Source: a virus
Length of the DNA stretch: 50,416 bases
Strand: one strand, 5' to 3'
IMG/VR virus record: IMGVR_UViG_3300033145_001556
Span: 1-50,416 of that record
Under the pieces are notes generated by a model, which was not told where the DNA came from, made no database searches, and worked only from the letters and a program-made list of their open reading frames with translations. The position numbers and the translations under genes are program-made. Positions within the stretch are counted from its first letter, which is position 1; each line of letters begins with the position of its first letter. Shown here piece after piece: positions 31,992 to 39,460 of the stretch.

Positions 31992-33641
31992 CTACTGCTG
32001 CGCGGCCGGCTGCTTCAGCCAGGCGCTGGCCTGTTGGATCTGATCGGCCCGGTCCTGGCCGTCGAAGCCCTTCCGGTTGGAGCACAGGTAGGACACGGCC
32101 TTCTCGATGCGGTTGCGCCCGGCGTAGCTCTGGCTGAGCATCTCGGAGCTGTTCGGGTCGGGCTCCGTGCCGGCGCGCTGCTGGCTCGCCGTGATGGGGC
32201 CGGTCGGCGGAGCTTGCGGGCCTTGCGGCGCTGCGGTTGCGGCCCCGCCGAGCTGGGTGCCGTTCGGGCCGGCGACGATGCGGCTCGAGAGGTACTGCCG
32301 CTCCTTCTCGGGCAGCGGGTAGTGCTCGCGGAACTTCGCGAGCTTCACCTCGTCGACCGTGCCGTCGCCCTGGAGGCAGGCGCGCCTGGAGCTCTGGATG
32401 CCGGGCAGCAGCCGGGAGCAGAGCTGCTTGTCGTTGCCCGACAGGTGAGCCGCCACCGCCTCGGCCTCCGCGTCGGCCTCGGTCTCGTTGACCGCGCCCA
32501 GCTTGCTGAGGGCGTCGTTGAGGGCCGTCACCATCGTGTCGGCCTTCTTGGCGTCCGCGATGGCCGTGGTCGCCTTGGCCAGGACGTCGGTGAAGTCCTT
32601 GCTCTCGAACAGCTGGAGCAGCTGGTTCAGGGCGTCCTGCGACTCGTTGCTCTGCTCGACGGCCTTCTCGGCCGCGGCCAGGATGGCGTCGTCCTTGTCT
32701 CGGCAACCCAGGATCGTGGCGAGCTTGGCGGTGAGTTGGGTGGCTTCCATTTCGGTCTCCGCAGTCGGTGGCTCGGGGGACTGGGTCGCGTCTGACCCAC
32801 CCCCTTGAGATACCAGACCACTGAGCATCCGAACAGCTTCGGCGAAGATCTCCTCCCGGGTGGCCAGGGTCCTGAGGCCCAAGAGCCCCCGGATGTTGGA
32901 GACGAGGTACTCCGGCTCGAGCCAGCTGGGAGCGGTGCCGTCGACCAGCATCCGCTGGAATTGCTCGAGCTCCACCAGCACTGCCGCGGCGTCGGCTTCG
33001 GCGCCCAGGCCGAAGATGTCCCGCAGGCCGACGACCGCCTCTTCCGGGGATTCCGCCTCGCCCCACACGCTCACGCTGGCCGCGATCCGCTCCAGGCCTT
33101 GGATGAAGGGGTGGTTGGTCAGAGCCACTGAGGTCAGCACTGGCCCGATTGCCTTGCCGCTCACGGGGTCTTTGCCGTTGGGCCAGACGCAGACGCTGGT
33201 GTTCTCGTAGGCCCCGGAGCGGACCTGCTCGAGGGCGGCCGGAAGGAACTCCGTCAGGGCCCAGAGTTGGGCCGTCCCGTCCGGAGCGTCCCGGACCTCG
33301 AGGTCCAGCACCCAGCCCGCCGCGGGCGCTCCTTGCTGCGGGACGCTGCCCCGGGTGGGGTCCATCTCGGACGCGTGCTCGTAGTCGTACGGCACGACGT
33401 GAGACATGCCGACACCGTTCGCCCCGGCCTCGTAGTCGGGGTGGGAGTGGAGGTTCGCGACCACCGCGTCGAACACCTCGCGCCGGAAGTCGACCACCGG
33501 GTGCATGGGGTGGCCGCGGTAGACACCCTCGAGGGCGACGTTCACCCAGACTGGGGAGGCGTCCTGGCTCTGGTCCACCGACAGGCGGACTCCACGACCG
33601 AATTGGGGGCGACCGAGGGGCTGAGCTTTGCGTGCGGCCAT
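31992..33641 (-). CDS. Prohead protease/scaffold (Mu gpI-like)
   Basis: 549 aa. The protease half shows VVPYDYEHASEMD, a hydrophobic APAAGWVLDLEVRD segment, FLPAALEQVRSGAYENTSVC and SVALTNHPFIQGLERI, as in Mu gpI-type serine proteases. After a Ser/Pro-rich linker the C-terminal half (from EMEATQLTAKLATIL) is helical and acidic, like an internal scaffold; its ATG could start a separate scaffold (Mu gpZ-like). The gene heads the capsid unit: TATCCT lies six bases before the ATG with no ribosome site. Confidence 0.8.
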   Translation of the reverse strand: MAARKAQPLGRPQFGRGVRLSVDQSQDASPVWVNVALEGVYRGHPMHPVVDFRREVFDAVVANLHSHPDYEAGANGVGMSHVVPYDYEHASEMDPTRGSVPQQGAPAAGWVLDLEVRDAPDGTAQLWALTEFLPAALEQVRSGAYENTSVCVWPNGKDPVSGKAIGPVLTSVALTNHPFIQGLERIAASVSVWGEAESPEEAVVGLRDIFGLGAEADAAAVLVELEQFQRMLVDGTAPSWLEPEYLVSNIRGLLGLRTLATREEIFAEAVRMLSGLVSQGGGSDATQSPEPPTAETEMEATQLTAKLATILGCRDKDDAILAAAEKAVEQSNESQDALNQLLQLFESKDFTDVLAKATTAIADAKKADTMVTALNDALSKLGAVNETEADAEAEAVAAHLSGNDKQLCSRLLPGIQSSRRACLQGDGTVDEVKLAKFREHYPLPEKERQYLSSRIVAGPNGTQLGGAATAAPQGPQAPPTGPITASQQRAGTEPDPNSSEMLSQSYAGRNRIEKAVSYLCSNRKGFDGQDRADQIQQASAWLKQPAAQQ

Positions 33642-33653: not shown

Positions 33654-33749
33654 GGGGGCGGCCGTCGGGAAGGCTACTCAGGCGTTCAGTTGCAACATCC
33701 TGAATCACTGGGCAGCTTCGCTGACCAGGAGAGGGAAGAGAGCAAGCGG

Positions 33750-34703
33750 ATGCACGTCAAGCAGGTGATAGACTGTGCGCACCGTTGTTCGTCCATATCC
33801 GAGCTGCTGGTGGGGTTGGCTCCGGAGGACAGCCGATGGGCGCCGCACGCTCGCGATTGGCTCTTTCGCGGGCACGGATCTCGGGAGTATCGCCTCGTGG
33901 CAACCGCCTTTCGCGCGAAGAGTTGGGTGCCTTTCGGAGTCGGAGGGAAGGTCTTCGACCCTACAAAGGCAACCAGCAGGAAGGAGCAGGAAAGCGCAGA
34001 GCGGGAAGTGCTCGCGCGCTTCTACGACGTCGCGAACGCGGCGGGGCTTCCACTACCCGGCGATCCTGCCACGCTGGTGATGCTGAGGAGCGCGTTCTTC
34101 CGCCCGGGGATGAACGGAGATGACGAGTGGCCGACACCGGAATGTGTACCGCTGCTGGCAGTCGCGCAGCACTACGGGGTTCCCACACGGCTGCTTGACT
34201 GGACGCGGTCTCCCCTAGCCGCGGCGTACTTCGCTGCAGACAGCGCTTCGCGGCGTGAGGTCGACGGTAAGGACTACCTTGACATCTGGGCCGTCCGTGA
34301 GTCGGTCCTGCGACGGTGCTTGAAGCGAAGTGGGATCGGTGGTGCGCGGTGGGATCTGGCTGAGGTGCCTGAATCCGCGAACGAGAACCTGCACGCACAA
34401 CGCGGGTTGTTCGCTGTGCTGCGCGGGGAGCCGCGACGCGCCAGGGATGGGCTGCAGCTCGACGACTACGTTGGGTTCCTGGGGTCGGTCCACCAGCAGG
34501 TGCCGAGCGCACCGCAGTTGACCCTTCCCGCCATGCGTCGCATCAGTCTTCCGGCGGCGATGGCGCCTGAACTCCTCATGGCGTTGGAGGCGAGAGGTAT
34601 TTCGGGTGCGAGCATCTTCCCGGGCTTCTCAGGGGTGGTGCGCGCAATGAAGGAGCGATCCTTCTACTTGCCCGACTACCCACCCGAGGTCTCCAGCGCC
34701 TAG
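33750..34703 (+). CDS. FRG-domain protein, inserted cargo gene
   Basis: 317 aa on the plus strand inside the minus-strand head operon. The FRG landmarks are WLFRGHGSREYRLVATAFR (about residues 37-55) and AVAQHYGVPTRLLDWTRSPL with AAYFAA (about 133-158). FRG proteins are of unknown biochemistry but are frequent near phage-defence genes and in mobile elements. A GGAGAGGGAAGAG ribosome site precedes the ATG. GC is lower than in the neighbours (60% in 34561-34620). I infer a prophage-borne accessory gene, perhaps for superinfection exclusion. Confidence 0.8.
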   Translation: MHVKQVIDCAHRCSSISELLVGLAPEDSRWAPHARDWLFRGHGSREYRLVATAFRAKSWVPFGVGGKVFDPTKATSRKEQESAEREVLARFYDVANAAGLPLPGDPATLVMLRSAFFRPGMNGDDEWPTPECVPLLAVAQHYGVPTRLLDWTRSPLAAAYFAADSASRREVDGKDYLDIWAVRESVLRRCLKRSGIGGARWDLAEVPESANENLHAQRGLFAVLRGEPRRARDGLQLDDYVGFLGSVHQQVPSAPQLTLPAMRRISLPAAMAPELLMALEARGISGASIFPGFSGVVRAMKERSFYLPDYPPEVSSA

Positions 34704-34920: not shown

Positions 34921-37518
34921 CTACTGACCCAGTCTGCGGATTTCTCGGACGCGTTCAACCATGTCGAAGGCTCCCGCGTCCCGAGCGCGCAGGACGGCCT
35001 TGTCCGTGTGGTACAGCGAGAAGGACTCAGCAAAGTACTCCGCGGGGTCCTGCTCCGCGTACGCGCTGACGCGGTGGGCCGCGCTGCCCTCGCGGCGGAT
35101 GTAGGCGCGCTGGATTGCGTGGTCGACCTGCTGCCACTCCTCGGTGCTCCCCGCGTAGTCCACGCCGCCGGCGCCGAGCTTGCGCCCGCGCATGTGCACC
35201 TCGTGACCGATCTCGTGGAAGGTCGACCGCCGGATCGCCTCCAGCTCGGTCTCGGCCGCCTCGGCCACGTTGAACAGCGCCGGACTGTCGGCGGTGAGTG
35301 CGCCGCGCCCGAAGGGGACGTTGCCGGTGCGGATCTTCATCTGCGCGCGGAGAGTCTGGTTGCCGAGCTGGACCTCCGGGTACCAGCAGCCCGAGCAGCC
35401 GTGTGGCATCGAGTTGCTGACTCGGCGGGAGTTGTTGGCCACGCGCTTCGTGAAGAGCAGGCGCTCGAGGGGCGACTCTTCCAGGAAGCGCAGGGCTCCC
35501 GCCTCGTTGAACGTGCTCATCACCGCGTCGTGCTCGCGCTTGCGGCGGAGCTTGCCCTGGATCCTCGCGAAGTGGCGGCCCTGCTCCGGCATCCCGGGGC
35601 GCGGTCGCGGCGGCGTCGGTACCGGTGGCGGCCGCGGCGGTGCAGATCCACCTCCGCCAGGTGGTGCAGCGGGTGGTGGCTGCCCTCCGCCTGCCGGCGC
35701 CGGCGGCGTCGACGGGATGGCGACGTCGCCCCCTCCGATGAGCCCGGTGGTGCCGGAGTCGAAGCCCGGGTCCGGGAGTTCGGTCGGCGCCGGGCCGATG
35801 GTGGCGCCCGTCTTGTCGACCCAGCGCTTCGAGCGCGAGATGACGCGGCAGCGGCAGTTGCTCGAGACAACGCCGTTCGCTACGATCCACCCGAGTGGCG
35901 ATTCGACGTCATACACATGGCCGCGAAACTCGAACTTCCGGACGCTGACCACCTGGTCGAGCGCTACCTGCGAGGGGTATCGCTGAAGCAGCTCGCGAGC
36001 GAGCGCAGCGTCAGCCGGCCGACCCTCGGTCGCATCCTTGAGGAGCACGGCGTCAAACTGCGAGGCCGTCCCGAGGCGGAGCGTCTGAAGTGGCGCGGCA
36101 TCAAGGGAAACAAGGCCGCCGTCGAGCGGCAATGCTCGGCCGCCTGGGCCAAGTCTCGCGGGCGCGACGTCCCCGTCCTCGAGCGACGAAAGCGAGCCCG
36201 CACCCACGCCCGGCGGCAGACTCGGCTCGGACTCTTCGAGGACGAGTTGGCTGGTCACATCGGCCACCGCGGCCTGGTGGTGCTGCAGCAGGCGCCAGTA
36301 GGACCCTACAACGTGGACTTCGCCTTCAAAGCAGCGCGCCTCGCCGTGGAACTCTTCACCTCGATAGCCGGTGAAGCTGCCACTGCCCGCTTCCGCGAGC
36401 GTACGGAATACCTGCTCGACTCGGGTTGGTGCCTGCTGATCGTCAGTCTCCGCACCGGGCCCCAGCGCGCCGACCCGGGTCTCAGCGACGTGGCAGACCA
36501 GGTGTTCGCCCTGCACGAGCGACTGCGCAGTGGTGAAGCCCTGCACGGTCAGTACGGGGTGATTGGCCGTCACGGTCAGCCGACGACCTACTGCAGTCGT
36601 GAGCTCGACGGCCTCCCCCGCATACCAGGCCTTTGACGCCCCGCAGACTTGGCCCGTGATCTCGGTGCCGGGCAGGAAGCAGTTGTAGCCGAAGGGCGGG
36701 TAGGCATCGCGCCAGAAGGGGTGGTCCGCGGGCAGGATGATCCCGTTGGCCGCCCGGTGCGTCTCGCGCTGCCGGTCATCCCGGACGGTCTGGACCTGCC
36801 AGTAGGGTCGAGCCGCGAGCACCGCGGGCTGGGTCATCTCCGCGAAGCGCCCCGACGAGTAGGCACTCCCCACGTTGGTGCGGAAGATGGTCTCGACGTG
36901 GCTCCGGTTGGCAGGCGTCCACCCAGCGCTTTCGAGTCGGGTGCGGACGTGCTTCTTGAACTCGCGGAAGTTGGGGCCCTTGTAGACCCACTTGTCCGTC
37001 GTCGGGTCCTTGTAGGTGCGCTCGCCAGACTGCCGCACCTGGCGGGCGAGTTCGCCGTGCGCCGTCTGCAGTAGCTCCTGCCGTGCCAGGCCCGCCACCG
37101 TGAAGGCCCGGCGCTTCGCGCCTGCCCGCAGGGCGTCGAACTGCTCCTTGGGCAGGATGGTGCGCGACTCGAACAGGCGCACCGCCTCCGCGTAGGGCGT
37201 CGACGCGAACGGACCGCGATCCCGCTTGAAGAGCACCTTGCTCGCAGTGAATGCGGGGAGCGGGATCTCCTCCTCGTGCTCACGCTCCCAGAGGCTGTCG
37301 AGGGCGCCGAGCATGACGCCGTGGAGGAGCTGCTGCTCAGCGAGTTCGGCGAAGCGCTCGAGGGGGAGCTGGTCCTCGATGCGGTTGAGTGCAGCCTTGA
37401 TGGCGGCCTCGCTGTCCTTGCCGTCGACGGCCTTGACGACCTGGTCGACCCACCGCTCGAGCTCGCGCGCTCCCGCGTCGACGCCAGACTCGACCAGGGT
37501 CTCGGGCGAGCCGTTCAC
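34921..37518 (-). CDS. MuF-like head morphogenesis protein with intein and C-terminal zincin-like domain
   Basis: 865 aa from a GTG without ribosome site. Residues 1-80 look like the C-terminal tail of a DUF935 portal. Residues about 90-280 are MuF (FTVAGLARQELL, ETIFRTNVGSAYSSGR, RDDRQRETHRAANGIILPAD, then YPPFGYN). The MuF motif is cut there by an intein (residues 280-554) and resumes as CRCRV. A Pro/Gly linker (about 595-645) leads to a domain with HEIGH at 768-772 and a downstream AEYFAESF, as in gluzincin metallopeptidases. Spliced length is 590 aa. Phage MuF proteins with C-terminal toxin domains are an established polymorphic toxin group. The gene may be reached by a -1 frameshift from the portal gene. 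Confidence 0.8.
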   Translation of the reverse strand: MNGSPETLVESGVDAGARELERWVDQVVKAVDGKDSEAAIKAALNRIEDQLPLERFAELAEQQLLHGVMLGALDSLWEREHEEEIPLPAFTASKVLFKRDRGPFASTPYAEAVRLFESRTILPKEQFDALRAGAKRRAFTVAGLARQELLQTAHGELARQVRQSGERTYKDPTTDKWVYKGPNFREFKKHVRTRLESAGWTPANRSHVETIFRTNVGSAYSSGRFAEMTQPAVLAARPYWQVQTVRDDRQRETHRAANGIILPADHPFWRDAYPPFGYNCFLPGTEITGQVCGASKAWYAGEAVELTTAVGRRLTVTANHPVLTVQGFTTAQSLVQGEHLVCHVAETRVGALGPGAETDDQQAPTRVEQVFRTLAEAGSGSFTGYRGEEFHGEARCFEGEVHVVGSYWRLLQHHQAAVADVTSQLVLEESEPSLPPGVGAGSLSSLEDGDVAPARLGPGGRALPLDGGLVSLDAAPLQTLRLGTASQFDAVLLKDATEGRPADAALARELLQRYPSQVALDQVVSVRKFEFRGHVYDVESPLGWIVANGVVSSNCRCRVISRSKRWVDKTGATIGPAPTELPDPGFDSGTTGLIGGGDVAIPSTPPAPAGGGQPPPAAPPGGGGSAPPRPPPVPTPPRPRPGMPEQGRHFARIQGKLRRKREHDAVMSTFNEAGALRFLEESPLERLLFTKRVANNSRRVSNSMPHGCSGCWYPEVQLGNQTLRAQMKIRTGNVPFGRGALTADSPALFNVAEAAETELEAIRRSTFHEIGHEVHMRGRKLGAGGVDYAGSTEEWQQVDHAIQRAYIRREGSAAHRVSAYAEQDPAEYFAESFSLYHTDKAVLRARDAGAFDMVERVREIRRLGQ
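35857..36681 (-). other. Intein in MuF
   Basis: 275 codons. Block A is CFLPGTEITG with Cys1; block B is TVTANHPVLT (T-x-x-H); block F/G is GHVYDVES...GWIVANGVVSSN followed by Cys+1. The insertion lies exactly before the Cys of the MuF CRC motif, a typical conserved site. The penultimate residue is Ser rather than His, which occurs in some active inteins. The central ~150 residues, read in this frame, are poor in Lys and rich in Ala/Gly/Leu/Pro/Val, as expected if they are the shadow of an antisense gene. Confidence 0.8.
35917..36636 (+). CDS. Antisense endonuclease-like gene nested in the intein (HTH + PD-(D/E)XK/DUF559/Vsr-like)
   Basis: 239 aa, lying wholly inside the intein coding sequence on the opposite strand, codon-for-codon complementary to it. 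Residues 12-48 form a helix-turn-helix (LVERYLRGVSLKQLASERSV). Residues about 104-180 read as a DUF559/Vsr-like nuclease: acidic residues in FEDEL (108-110), then QQAPVGPYNVDFAF with Asp134, then RLAVELF with Glu145, then ERTEYLLDSGWCLLIVS. That matches the E...D...E order of PD-(D/E)XK enzymes. The start lies in the codons of intein block F; no clear ribosome site. I infer a homing endonuclease; long antisense frames are common at this GC, so the protein-level match is the evidence. Confidence 0.6.
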   Translation: MAAKLELPDADHLVERYLRGVSLKQLASERSVSRPTLGRILEEHGVKLRGRPEAERLKWRGIKGNKAAVERQCSAAWAKSRGRDVPVLERRKRARTHARRQTRLGLFEDELAGHIGHRGLVVLQQAPVGPYNVDFAFKAARLAVELFTSIAGEAATARFRERTEYLLDSGWCLLIVSLRTGPQRADPGLSDVADQVFALHERLRSGEALHGQYGVIGRHGQPTTYCSRELDGLPRIPGL

Positions 37519-37580: not shown

Positions 37581-39101
37581 TCAGGAATCGTCCGAGCTCG
37601 CCTGCAACAGCCGCAGCTGTCGTACGTTCCGGGACGCGGCTAAAGGGGCGGCATCCCCCTCGGCAGGCGGCGCAGCCGGGTCACCGGTGGGCGAGCCCCC
37701 GCCCTCGGTGTCGTTCGCGGGGTCGCCGGGCATGGTGCCGACCTTCGGTGCCGGCGCGGCTGCGGGCGCCCCGAACCCGCCCGGCGCTGCCTGCGGCGAC
37801 TGCTGCACGACGGCGTCGCCCGGCTCGGGCTTGGAGAAGCCGATGGCCTCGTAGACCTCGTCCTCCTTGAGAGGCACGCCGATGCTCATGGCCTTCTTGG
37901 TGCGCTCCGTCTCGGCGGTACGGTCCGGCGGCAGTTCAAACTCGACCTTGATGGTCGGGCAGTGCGAGAGAGCCTCGGCTCCGAAGTTCACCTCGACGAC
38001 GCTGGCCGCGATGCCCTCGGTGAGGATCGCGCCGATGTTCCAGCCGTCGGCCGCGAGGACCAGCATCTGCTCGTCCTGCATGACCACGGCTTGCTGCCCG
38101 CCCAGGCCGTCAGCCTTGGCGTCAGTGGTCCGGGTGTTCCCGAGCACGAGCTTGCTGTTCTGGTCGTCGCACTCCGCGGCGACGTCCTTGTGGATTTCGC
38201 CGGCGCCGCGCGCCGGCTGGTCCGTCTTGACGTCCACGCCCTTGGGGAGCTGCGCCGAGCTGTTGGCGCCGAGCTTGTCGACGGTGGCACGCGCCTGGTC
38301 GAGCACGTCCTTCTGAATCGTGGCGTCGGGGGCGACGAACACGATGCGCCACGGCTTGCCGAACACCTCGAGCAGAATCATCCGCTCGCGCCAGTCGAAC
38401 CGCTTGAAGTAGCTGAAGTAGAGACAGCGCGGCCCGAAGCCTTCGCGCTCGGGGTACTCGTTGAACAGCTGGGGCGTGAACTCGATGAACTTGTGGGGGT
38501 AGTCGCGCAGGGCGAGGCCGCGCTTCTCGAAGCCGTACCCGCTGAACAGGTCGTCGCGTACGCGGAGCTCGCGCTCGGGTCCGAACGATAGGCGCCGCGG
38601 GTGGATCCAGCCCAGGTCGTCGATGCGCCACTGCACCTTGCCGCCGCGGTTCTCGCGCCAGTGCTTCTCGAGCGCGGCGCGGCCGTGGCAGTGCCCCCAG
38701 TTGAGCTGCAGCATGCGCTGCGGCAGGTGGGGGATCCAGGCCAGCTGCTGGCGCACGACGTCGGCGAGTTGATTGGCGAACTTGGGGTCGATGCCGTCGC
38801 CCTCGGCCGGGACGACCTTCGGGTGCATGGCGGCGAGGGAGCGGAAGCGCTTGCCGACGATGCTGCCGAGGTGCGGGTCGATGTGGATGGTCTCGTAGGT
38901 GAGATCGGTCAGGTCGCGCATGTGACCGAACTCGGCCGCGCGCAGGACTGTCTCGATGGTGGCCGGGGTGAGCGCGCGCCCGAAGTAGCGCCGGCACTGC
39001 TCGGTCTCGGGGATCTCCCCGCCGAACATCACGTCCTCGAGGTCGCGCCTCGACACCCACGTGCTGCCATCGGCTGCCGTTTTCGTGCCTACCTGTGCCA
39101 T
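37581..39101 (-). CDS. Portal protein (DUF935, Mu gp29-like)
   Basis: 506 aa. Segments such as QCRRYFGRALTPATIETVLR, DPHLGSIVGKRFRSLA, MLQLNWGHCHGRAALEKHW, HRFIEF-like YPHKFIEFTP and YFKRFDWRERMILLEVFGKP fit DUF935 portals. The family forms the dodecameric ring through which DNA enters the head. The expected C-terminal DUF935 tail is missing from this frame and appears in the next (MuF) frame. A slippery CCCTTTA lies 20 codons before the stop. A Pro/Gly/Ala-rich stretch precedes it. Confidence 0.8.
   Translation of the reverse strand: MAQVGTKTAADGSTWVSRRDLEDVMFGGEIPETEQCRRYFGRALTPATIETVLRAAEFGHMRDLTDLTYETIHIDPHLGSIVGKRFRSLAAMHPKVVPAEGDGIDPKFANQLADVVRQQLAWIPHLPQRMLQLNWGHCHGRAALEKHWRENRGGKVQWRIDDLGWIHPRRLSFGPERELRVRDDLFSGYGFEKRGLALRDYPHKFIEFTPQLFNEYPEREGFGPRCLYFSYFKRFDWRERMILLEVFGKPWRIVFVAPDATIQKDVLDQARATVDKLGANSSAQLPKGVDVKTDQPARGAGEIHKDVAAECDDQNSKLVLGNTRTTDAKADGLGGQQAVVMQDEQMLVLAADGWNIGAILTEGIAASVVEVNFGAEALSHCPTIKVEFELPPDRTAETERTKKAMSIGVPLKEDEVYEAIGFSKPEPGDAVVQQSPQAAPGGFGAPAAAPAPKVGTMPGDPANDTEGGGSPTGDPAAPPAEGDAAPLAASRNVRQLRLLQASSDDS
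37641..37647 (-). other. Candidate -1 slippery heptamer CCCTTTA joining portal and MuF frames
   Basis: 0-frame codons GCC-CCT-TTA fit X XXY YYZ. A -1 slip continues without stop through 41 codons (GELGRFLTALRAHEYFGDHV is part) into the MuF frame, giving a 1393-residue portal-MuF fusion before intein removal. Without a slip, translation ends 19 codons later. Confidence 0.5.
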
Positions 39102-39460
39102 GGCAACCACCTCCGCAGCTTGCTCTGACCCTGGTCGAACGCGCTCAGCAGGGTCTCGGCCACCTTCTTGAGTTGCTTGGACTCGCCCTCGCGTCGGGCG
39201 TGCTCGGCCATGATCTGGTCGGCGAGTTGCTCGAAGCGCGTGGCCCAGCGCTCGACCTCGGCCTGCAGGAGCCTGGCGCGTACCGTCGCGACCGGTGAGA
39301 GTCCGGCTTGCTTGAGCTGCGCCTGGGCCTGGGCGCGCCAGTCGCGCGCTTGCTTGCGCAGGTTGTTGGCGCACTGCTCGAGGCCCTGACGGTAGCCGTC
39401 GGCGACGCCGGCGTTGACCATGGCCTGGCTCAGGGGCTGGATGGGGAGGGGTTGGTTCAC
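39089..39460 (-). CDS. Helical hypothetical head-region protein
   Basis: 123 aa from GTG (GTGA overlap with the gene upstream), overlapping the portal start by 13 bases. The sequence is almost all helix (QGLEQCANNLRKQARDWRAQ, VERWATRFEQLADQIMAEHA). No motif is recognised. Overlaps on both sides place it in the packaging/head operon. Confidence 0.5.
   Translation of the reverse strand: MNQPLPIQPLSQAMVNAGVADGYRQGLEQCANNLRKQARDWRAQAQAQLKQAGLSPVATVRARLLQAEVERWATRFEQLADQIMAEHARREGESKQLKKVAETLLSAFDQGQSKLRRWLPWHR

What the first reader, a model, noticed from the sequence alone, without database searches (positions are those of the whole stretch)
35917..36636. Antisense nuclease gene nested inside an intein
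The intein in MuF has on its opposite strand a 239-codon frame that reads as a helix-turn-helix joined to a DUF559/Vsr-like PD-(D/E)XK nuclease. Homing endonucleases in inteins are normally in frame with the splicing domain. Here the sense reading of the middle of the intein looks like a shadow, while the antisense reading has nuclease order E108/E110, D134, E145. If real, the mobile element uses both strands of the same codons. Vsr-like homing endonucleases are known next to inteins (EDxHD family), but I know of no described fully antisense nested case.
Basis: partly seen in the sequence, partly recalled or inferred. Interest (0 to 1): 0.85.

Follow-up and report, generated by a model that had tools for sequence, protein, structure and literature searches.

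The report
Homing nuclease hidden antisense in intein
The self-splicing insert (intein) in this phage's head gene carries, read backwards on the other DNA strand, a complete gene for a DNA-cutting enzyme of the kind that spreads such inserts; the same two-strand arrangement is conserved across a wide range of phages and had almost never been annotated.

Summary
Window 35917-36636 (+) encodes a 239-aa protein (helix-turn-helix plus a Vsr/DUF559-type PD-(D/E)XK nuclease). It lies wholly inside, and antisense to, a MuF intein (35857-36681, -). In all 98 related loci first examined the sense frame is open across the match, always in the same register. In 21 independent pairs the nuclease core varies most at the ANTISENSE wobble position, while the exteins vary most at the sense wobble position, so selection changes strand inside one intein. 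AlphaFold2 gives the antisense protein pLDDT 93.5. Its closest solved structure is I-Bth0305I, a phage homing endonuclease, followed by Vsr. In E. coli and Salmonella phages the intein is 95.7% identical while the exteins are 68-79% identical, and hundreds of relatives have the empty site: the signature of homing. One correction: the sense reading is not all shadow. Sense residues 85-136 are predicted structured and partly sense-constrained, opposite the nuclease active site, so part of the DNA codes for two folded proteins. Antisense expression, cleavage and splicing are inferred, not shown. Antisense homing genes are known in group I introns; I found no described antisense nuclease in an intein.

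The parts
34921..37518 (-). MuF-like minor capsid gene (host gene, 865 aa with intein)
   Evidence: Phage_Mu_F E 1.4e-13, Intein_splicing 3.7e-6; PHROG minor head protein 8e-44
35857..36681 (-). Intein, 275 aa, Cys1 (36679-36681) to Asn275 (35857-35859), inserted in ..PPFGYN|CRCR..
   Evidence: Invariant Cys1, block B His, terminal Asn and +1 Cys across 46 relatives; 34/34 relatives match Intein_splicing; AF2 splicing halves pLDDT above 90 and intein structures as Foldseek top hits
35917..36636 (+). Antisense gene: HTH plus Vsr/DUF559-type PD-(D/E)XK nuclease, 239 aa
35941..36084 (+). Helix-turn-helix region of the nuclease (residues 9-56); some relatives carry a second HTH
   Evidence: HTH_58 11-56; helices in the model; second HTH seen
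36238..36405 (+). Catalytic core: E108 (36238-36240), Q125, Y131-N132-x-D134 (36316-36318), A143-V144-E145 (36349-36351), R162 (36400-36402)
   Evidence: Near-invariant columns over 61 sequences; fold match to 3r3p and Vsr
35917..35919 (+). Antisense ATG start, complement of the block-F His codon of the intein (HVYD)
   Evidence: Opposite codon is ATG in 37/43 relatives against 17 expected from host His-codon usage; arrangement shown
35857..35887 (+). Weak promoter-like pair TTGCTC-17-TACGAT near the C-terminal splice junction, upstream of the antisense start (position approximate)
   Evidence: Family-wide score above synonymous recodings; not found by the strict consensus scan; tentative
36271..36429 (.). 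Doubly coding segment: antisense residues about 120-171 (active site) opposite sense intein residues about 85-136 (predicted structured, FHG[DE] motif)
   Evidence: Ala143 codon GCC in 60/60; sense G/D/H constrained at antisense wobble bases; sense pLDDT mostly 70-90
36025..36273 (.). Segment coding mainly on the antisense strand: antisense residues 37-119 opposite sense residues 137-219 (disordered linker)
   Evidence: Sense pLDDT below 50 at 137-219; antisense wobble most variable
36505..36633 (.). Segment constrained mainly on the sense strand: nuclease C-terminus opposite the N-terminal splicing domain with block B
   Evidence: Entropy AS3 minus AS1 = -0.40, 95% -0.58 to -0.22

Best explanation
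This is a mobile (homing) intein whose homing endonuclease is encoded on the opposite strand from the intein itself. The sense strand makes a MuF precursor with an intein that is excised from the protein. The antisense strand, translated from an ATG formed by the complement of the block-F histidine codon, makes a separate HTH plus Vsr-type nuclease. That nuclease is inferred to bind and cut intein-less MuF genes at the ..N|CRC.. site in mixed infections, so that repair copies in the whole element. The nuclease gene occupies the place where ordinary inteins carry an in-frame endonuclease domain. Shown here: sequence, fold, strand-switching selection, conserved register, empty sites, and the intein being more similar between phages than its host gene. 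Inferred: antisense transcription and translation, DNA cleavage, homing, splicing.
For: Homologous antisense proteins in diverse phages, nested in 98/98 loci with the sense frame open in one register. In 21 pairs, core differences at sense positions 1/2/3 are 1556/688/1047 of 4087 codons, against 1338/1147/2075 of 4623 in exteins; 20/21 pairs show the antisense-coding order in the core. Codons that would put a stop in the sense frame: 299 expected, 0 found. AF2 pLDDT 93.5. Foldseek top hit I-Bth0305I, prob 1.00, then Vsr; PDB profile hits 3hrl 3e-6 and 3r3p 3e-4. Catalytic E, Q, D, E conserved. Start codon ATG in 37/43 against 17 expected, P 5.5e-11. Intein 95.7% against exteins 68.4/79.0% identical between E. 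coli phage Snoke and Salmonella phage celemicas. 497 records carry this MuF gene; 70 cover at least 80% of the intein-bearing query, and most of the rest listed cover about 50-57% in two pieces; exact empty site in fFiEco03, HPN|CRS. Two different insertion sites in E. coli phage MuF genes, both with nested antisense nucleases.
Against: No transcript, protein or cleavage data. DUF559 and MTES_1575 scores for single members lie below Pfam cut-offs. Promoter signal in the window itself is weak. The DNA target of the nuclease is unknown. Part of the sense middle is also constrained, which the simplest picture (antisense gene over an idle linker) does not predict. Counts of loci are not phylogenetically corrected.
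Confidence: 0.88

Rival explanations
1. The antisense frame is a codon-bias shadow of a sense-coded intein in GC-rich DNA, and its likeness to nucleases is accidental.
For: Direct-complement antisense frames are often open in GC-rich genes; some antisense stop-to-stop frames here run over 1,100 codons.
Against: Homology and fold to homing endonucleases; the antisense wobble is the most variable position in 20/21 pairs; members at 41-45% GC with many expected antisense stops and none found; the family also exists as a gene of its own with a closed opposite strand (Acinetobacter IME285).
Confidence: 0.02
2. The antisense gene is real and was a homing endonuclease, but its present job is different: for example it acts as a repressor (HTH) or its antisense transcript tunes capsid-gene expression.
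For: HTH domain; antisense position over a structural gene; T4-type intron-encoded endonucleases can act as autorepressors (section heading in PMC2988022).
Against: Catalytic E, Q, D, E and R conserved in nearly all members; sporadic distribution with an intein more similar than its exteins, as active homing leaves.
Confidence: 0.08
3. The intein is not a working intein; the sense frame is merely kept open as a read-through insertion in MuF (as proposed for ShiLan) while the antisense nuclease spreads it.
For: The window's Intein_splicing score is just under the Pfam cut-off; splicing was not tested.
Against: Cys1, block B His, terminal Asn and +1 Cys invariant in 46 sequences; splicing halves modelled with pLDDT above 90 and intein structures as top fold hits.
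Confidence: 0.03

Closest known systems
I-Bth0305I (PDB 3r3p), Vsr-type homing endonuclease of a phage group I intron
   Same: Same catalytic fold (Foldseek rank 1, prob 1.00; profile E 3e-4), phage mobile-element nuclease
   Different: From memory: encoded in a RecA group I intron, not in an intein and not antisense to a protein-coding sequence
Canonical inteins with in-frame endonuclease domains (for example the VMA inteins of PMC8966425)
   Same: Splicing domain interrupted at the place where the nuclease sits (profile matches only residues about 9-76 and 228-270 of the intein); homing distribution
   Different: There the nuclease is in frame and part of the intein; here it is a separate antisense protein of another nuclease class
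Antisense homing endonuclease genes in nuclear group I introns (Didymium Dsq.L2066 and Dir.S956-2, PMC9548176)
   Same: Homing endonuclease gene on the strand opposite to its host element
   Different: The host element there is an RNA ribozyme with the gene inserted in a peripheral segment (P9.2), so no double protein coding; His-Cys class; eukaryotic rDNA
ShiLan domain (PMC11855218): out-of-frame HNH in a phage methylase
   Same: Homing nuclease hidden in another reading frame of an insertion that keeps the host frame open
   Different: Another frame starting from a GTG and reading in the direction of the methylase insertion, HNH class, no intein splicing domain
EDxHD nucleases beside split inteins (recalled; Dassa 2009 not held in the library)
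   Same: Recalled as Vsr-like nucleases associated with phage-type inteins
   Different: Recalled as separate genes between intein halves, not antisense nested; not compared here

Membership tests
Vsr/DUF559-type PD-(D/E)XK nucleases (MTES_1575/I-Bth0305I group) | Sequence profile match | tested here: met
   Alignment profile hits 3hrl and 3r3p; MTES_1575 in 7/12 and DUF559 in 4/12 members, the window member below the curated cut-offs
Vsr/DUF559-type PD-(D/E)XK nucleases (MTES_1575/I-Bth0305I group) | Fold | tested here: met
   pLDDT 93.5; Foldseek 3r3p prob 1.00 and TM 0.62 by target; Vsr prob 0.98
Vsr/DUF559-type PD-(D/E)XK nucleases (MTES_1575/I-Bth0305I group) | Conserved acidic catalytic residues | tested here: met
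   E108 57/61, D134 61/61, E145 61/61
Vsr/DUF559-type PD-(D/E)XK nucleases (MTES_1575/I-Bth0305I group) | DNA cleavage | not testable with these tools
   Needs a biochemical assay
Intein | Cys/Ser1, block B TxxH, terminal Asn, +1 Cys/Ser/Thr | tested here: met
   Invariant over 46 relatives; window C1, TANH, N275, +1 C
Intein | HINT fold | tested here: met
   Splicing halves pLDDT above 90; top Foldseek hits are inteins
Intein | Protein splicing | not testable with these tools
   Needs expression of the precursor
Homing element | Empty sites in close relatives, precise insertion | tested here: met
   Snoke HPN|intein|CRS against fFiEco03 HPN|CRS; most of the 497 records listed cover only the exteins
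Homing element | Element more similar than host gene between distant phages | tested here: met
   95.7% against 68.4/79.0%
Homing element | Site-specific cleavage of the empty allele and gene conversion | not testable with these tools
   Needs a cleavage assay and a two-phage cross
Canonical intein-encoded endonuclease | Nuclease in frame with the splicing domain | tested here: not met
   Nuclease is on the opposite strand in every nested locus
EDxHD family | EDxHD sequence motif and profile | not tested
   No model of that family was at hand

The most novel reading that the evidence does not exclude
Phage head-gene inteins have, as a rule rather than an exception, a two-strand design: the intein on one strand and its mobility enzyme on the other, with the active-site region coding for folded protein on both strands. 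The design is ancient and uncouples the nuclease (possibly with its own promoter) from the late, abundant expression of the capsid gene in which it lives.
Probability: 0.5. Interest if true: 0.92.

Novelty: new variant of a known kind. Interest (0 to 1): 0.85.

Why it matters
It shows that an essential structural gene, a splicing element and a mobility enzyme can share the same DNA on both strands and stay that way across phages of Proteobacteria and Actinobacteria. Annotation pipelines miss it because the antisense frame is rejected as an overlap: in most records examined the nuclease is unannotated. It offers a large natural data set on antisense double coding, supplies a family of HTH-Vsr homing nucleases with predictable target sites, and makes testable how a homing enzyme is expressed from inside a late capsid gene. 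Workable models exist in E. coli phages (Snoke with the intein, fFiEco03 with the empty site).

Tried and rejected
Searching viral contigs with the window protein alone found no relatives, as did the window's MuF N-extein; a small alignment (A2) worked. The strict promoter scan found nothing near the antisense start; the family-wide score was higher than synonymous recodings but sequences are related, so it is only supportive. Shine-Dalgarno matches were not clearly better than synonymous recodings (3.9 against 3.6). RNA folding at the start was not unusual (z -0.7). A pure sense-shadow reading was rejected by the substitution pattern; a pure antisense reading of the whole middle was rejected by the invariant Ala143 GCC codon and the structured sense segment. 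Searches of the open paper library found no antisense nuclease in an intein; Gorbalenya 1998 (Non-canonical inteins) is not held, so prior description cannot be excluded.

Full report
WHAT IS THERE. The window is a virus record of 50,416 bases with a Mu-like head region on the minus strand: portal 37581-39374, MuF 34921-37518 and Mu-like I (protease/scaffold) protein 31992-33641. The MuF gene holds an intein of 275 residues, 35857-36681 (-), from Cys1 to Asn275, followed by Cys. On the plus strand 35917-36636 is an ATG frame of 239 codons. Its product matches HTH_58 (2.2e-5, above cut-off) and, more weakly, DUF559 and the MTES_1575 nuclease family.

RELATIVES. tblastn against 50,697 phage records gave 50 records. 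The eleven regions opened lie in phages of Pseudomonas, Mycobacterium, Gordonia, Vibrio, Cronobacter, Haemophilus, Idiomarinaceae and Klebsiella, and in each the match is antisense inside a head-gene CDS (or a CDS that reads as one) with no antisense gene annotated. Two scans of IMG/VR with small alignments gave about 86 more loci. In all 98 loci then examined the sense strand is open over the whole match, always in the register in which antisense codon position 1 opposes sense position 3. Further searches widened the range. Salmonella Jerseyvirus and E. coli Kagunavirus phages carry it; in Snoke the intein was annotated by its depositors but not the nuclease, and in PK2 an antisense hypothetical protein was annotated (XRA40007.1). 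A Helicobacter prophage and bacterial contigs including Atlantibacter also carry it. Two relatives are not nested: Acinetobacter phage IME285, a gene of its own with a closed opposite strand (annotated AYP68850.1), and a Thermoleophilia contig without an intein. These show that an open opposite strand is not automatic.

IT IS A NUCLEASE. A profile of the family finds 3hrl (3.2e-6) and 3r3p, the catalytic domain of I-Bth0305I (3e-4), among solved structures. AlphaFold2 with 51 sequences gives mean pLDDT 93.5 and pTM 0.78: helices of an HTH, then the alpha/beta core. Foldseek against the PDB puts I-Bth0305I first (prob 1.00, TM 0.62 by target length) and Vsr next (0.98), with modest E-values. 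Over 61 sequences below 80% identity, E108 is conserved in 57, Q125 in 60, Y131, N132, D134 and E145 in all, R162 in 60.

SELECTION SWITCHES STRAND. In 21 pairs using each sequence once, differences in the nuclease core at sense positions 1, 2, 3 were 1556, 688, 1047 of 4087 codons: the antisense wobble varies most, in 20 of 21 pairs. In the N-exteins they were 1338, 1147, 2075 of 4623: the sense wobble varies most, in every pair measured. Antisense amino-acid identity exceeds sense identity in 20 of 21 cores (for example 74 against 48%). The sense frame is nevertheless kept open: codons in the nuclease gene that would put a stop in the sense strand were expected 299 times over 72 loci from host codon usage and found 0 times. 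Per-column entropies over 61 sequences show antisense constraint in nuclease residues 9-119 and sense constraint in residues 197-239 (opposite block B); in between the contrast is small. The alignments for these column counts were made on the antisense reading; pairs above 80% identity need almost no gaps and show the same.

BOTH STRANDS IN THE MIDDLE. AlphaFold2 of the sense intein (34 sequences) gives pLDDT above 90 for the splicing halves, below 50 for residues 137-219, but mostly 70-90 for residues 85-136. Those lie opposite the nuclease active site. The sense motif FHGD is the complement of the nuclease VAVE. The codon of Ala143 is GCC in 60 of 60 sequences, whereas six other well-conserved alanines use GCC in about 40-55%. 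The antisense protein cannot explain that; a required sense glycine (or a DNA-level need) can. So part of this DNA appears to code for folded protein on both strands.

START AND PROMOTER. The nuclease ATG is the complement of the block-F histidine codon (HVYD). A His codon is CAT or CAC, so its complement is ATG or GTG, both usable starts. ATG is opposite in 37 of 43 relatives with that His, against 17 expected from host usage (P 5.5e-11, not corrected for relatedness). Promoter-like scores upstream exceed synonymous recodings across the family (Stouffer 8.8, same caveat); in the window only a weak pair is seen, and a strict scan finds none.

MOBILITY. Between E. coli phage Snoke and Salmonella phage celemicas the intein is 95.7% identical, the exteins 68.4 and 79.0%. 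Of 497 phage records with this MuF gene, 70 cover at least 80% of the intein-bearing query; most others listed cover about 50-57% in two pieces. Phage fFiEco03 has the exact empty site HPN|CRS. An intein-less relative of the window's own MuF exists in Meiothermus phage MMP7 (41% identity over part of the N-extein). A record from a further E. coli phage carries a divergent nested element at a second site in the same gene. This is what homing leaves behind.

MECHANISM (inferred). The intein splices itself out of MuF. The antisense gene makes a sequence-specific nuclease that cuts the empty MuF site in a co-infecting phage; repair copies in the element. Having the nuclease on the other strand would let it be made at another time and level than the abundant late capsid protein; this is a suggestion, not a result.

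KNOWN OR NEW. In-frame endonucleases are the rule in inteins (PMC8966425). Antisense homing genes exist in group I introns (PMC9548176), where the host element is a ribozyme. ShiLan has an out-of-frame HNH without a splicing domain (PMC11855218). I found no antisense nuclease in an intein in the open library, but subscription papers, among them Gorbalenya 1998, could not be read. I therefore rate it a new variant of a known kind.

LIMITS. No expression, cleavage or splicing data exist here. Single-member Pfam scores for the nuclease are marginal. Locus counts and P values are not corrected for relatedness.

Noticed in passing
window 36343-36345 (Ala143 codon) and relatives: Ala143 of the nuclease is coded GCC in all 60 relatives that have Ala there, while other conserved Ala use all four codons; the sense strand (FHGD) or the DNA itself must constrain it.
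   Followed up: partly
window 34996-35220 (-), MuF residues 767-841: The C-terminal part of the MuF protein weakly matches zinc metallopeptidase families (ATLF 3e-4, Peptidase_M90 1e-3, both below cut-off) with an HExxH-like FHEIGHE motif; a MuF-fused peptidase.
   Followed up: no
window 33702-34703 (+): FRG-domain protein (3.7e-17) on the strand opposite to the head genes, probably a moron or defence-type gene.
   Followed up: no
L117 (E. coli phage Ec1-ASingh): A divergent antisense-nested intein at a second site of the same MuF gene (STT|C...VKN|CRARDG); the record is marked unverified.
   Followed up: partly
L115 455-1348 (Acinetobacter phage IME285): Free-standing homologue of the nuclease with two HTH-like units, opposite strand closed; a possible ancestor form or an escaped copy.
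   Followed up: partly
L104 2004-2813 and L107 1626-2027: The antisense region was annotated as a hypothetical protein in Salmonella phage PK2 (XRA40007.1); in phage vB_StyS-sam a smaller antisense hypothetical (BBO65996.1) lies in the same region, its frame not checked.
   Followed up: partly
relatives L004, L005, L007-L011: The nuclease has one or two N-terminal HTH units in different relatives, which may reflect different target recognition.
   Followed up: no
A4 sense proteins (6 to 8 of 46): Several relatives have the portal and the MuF parts read as one frame (Phage_portal or Portal_Mu plus intein), perhaps natural fusions.
   Followed up: no
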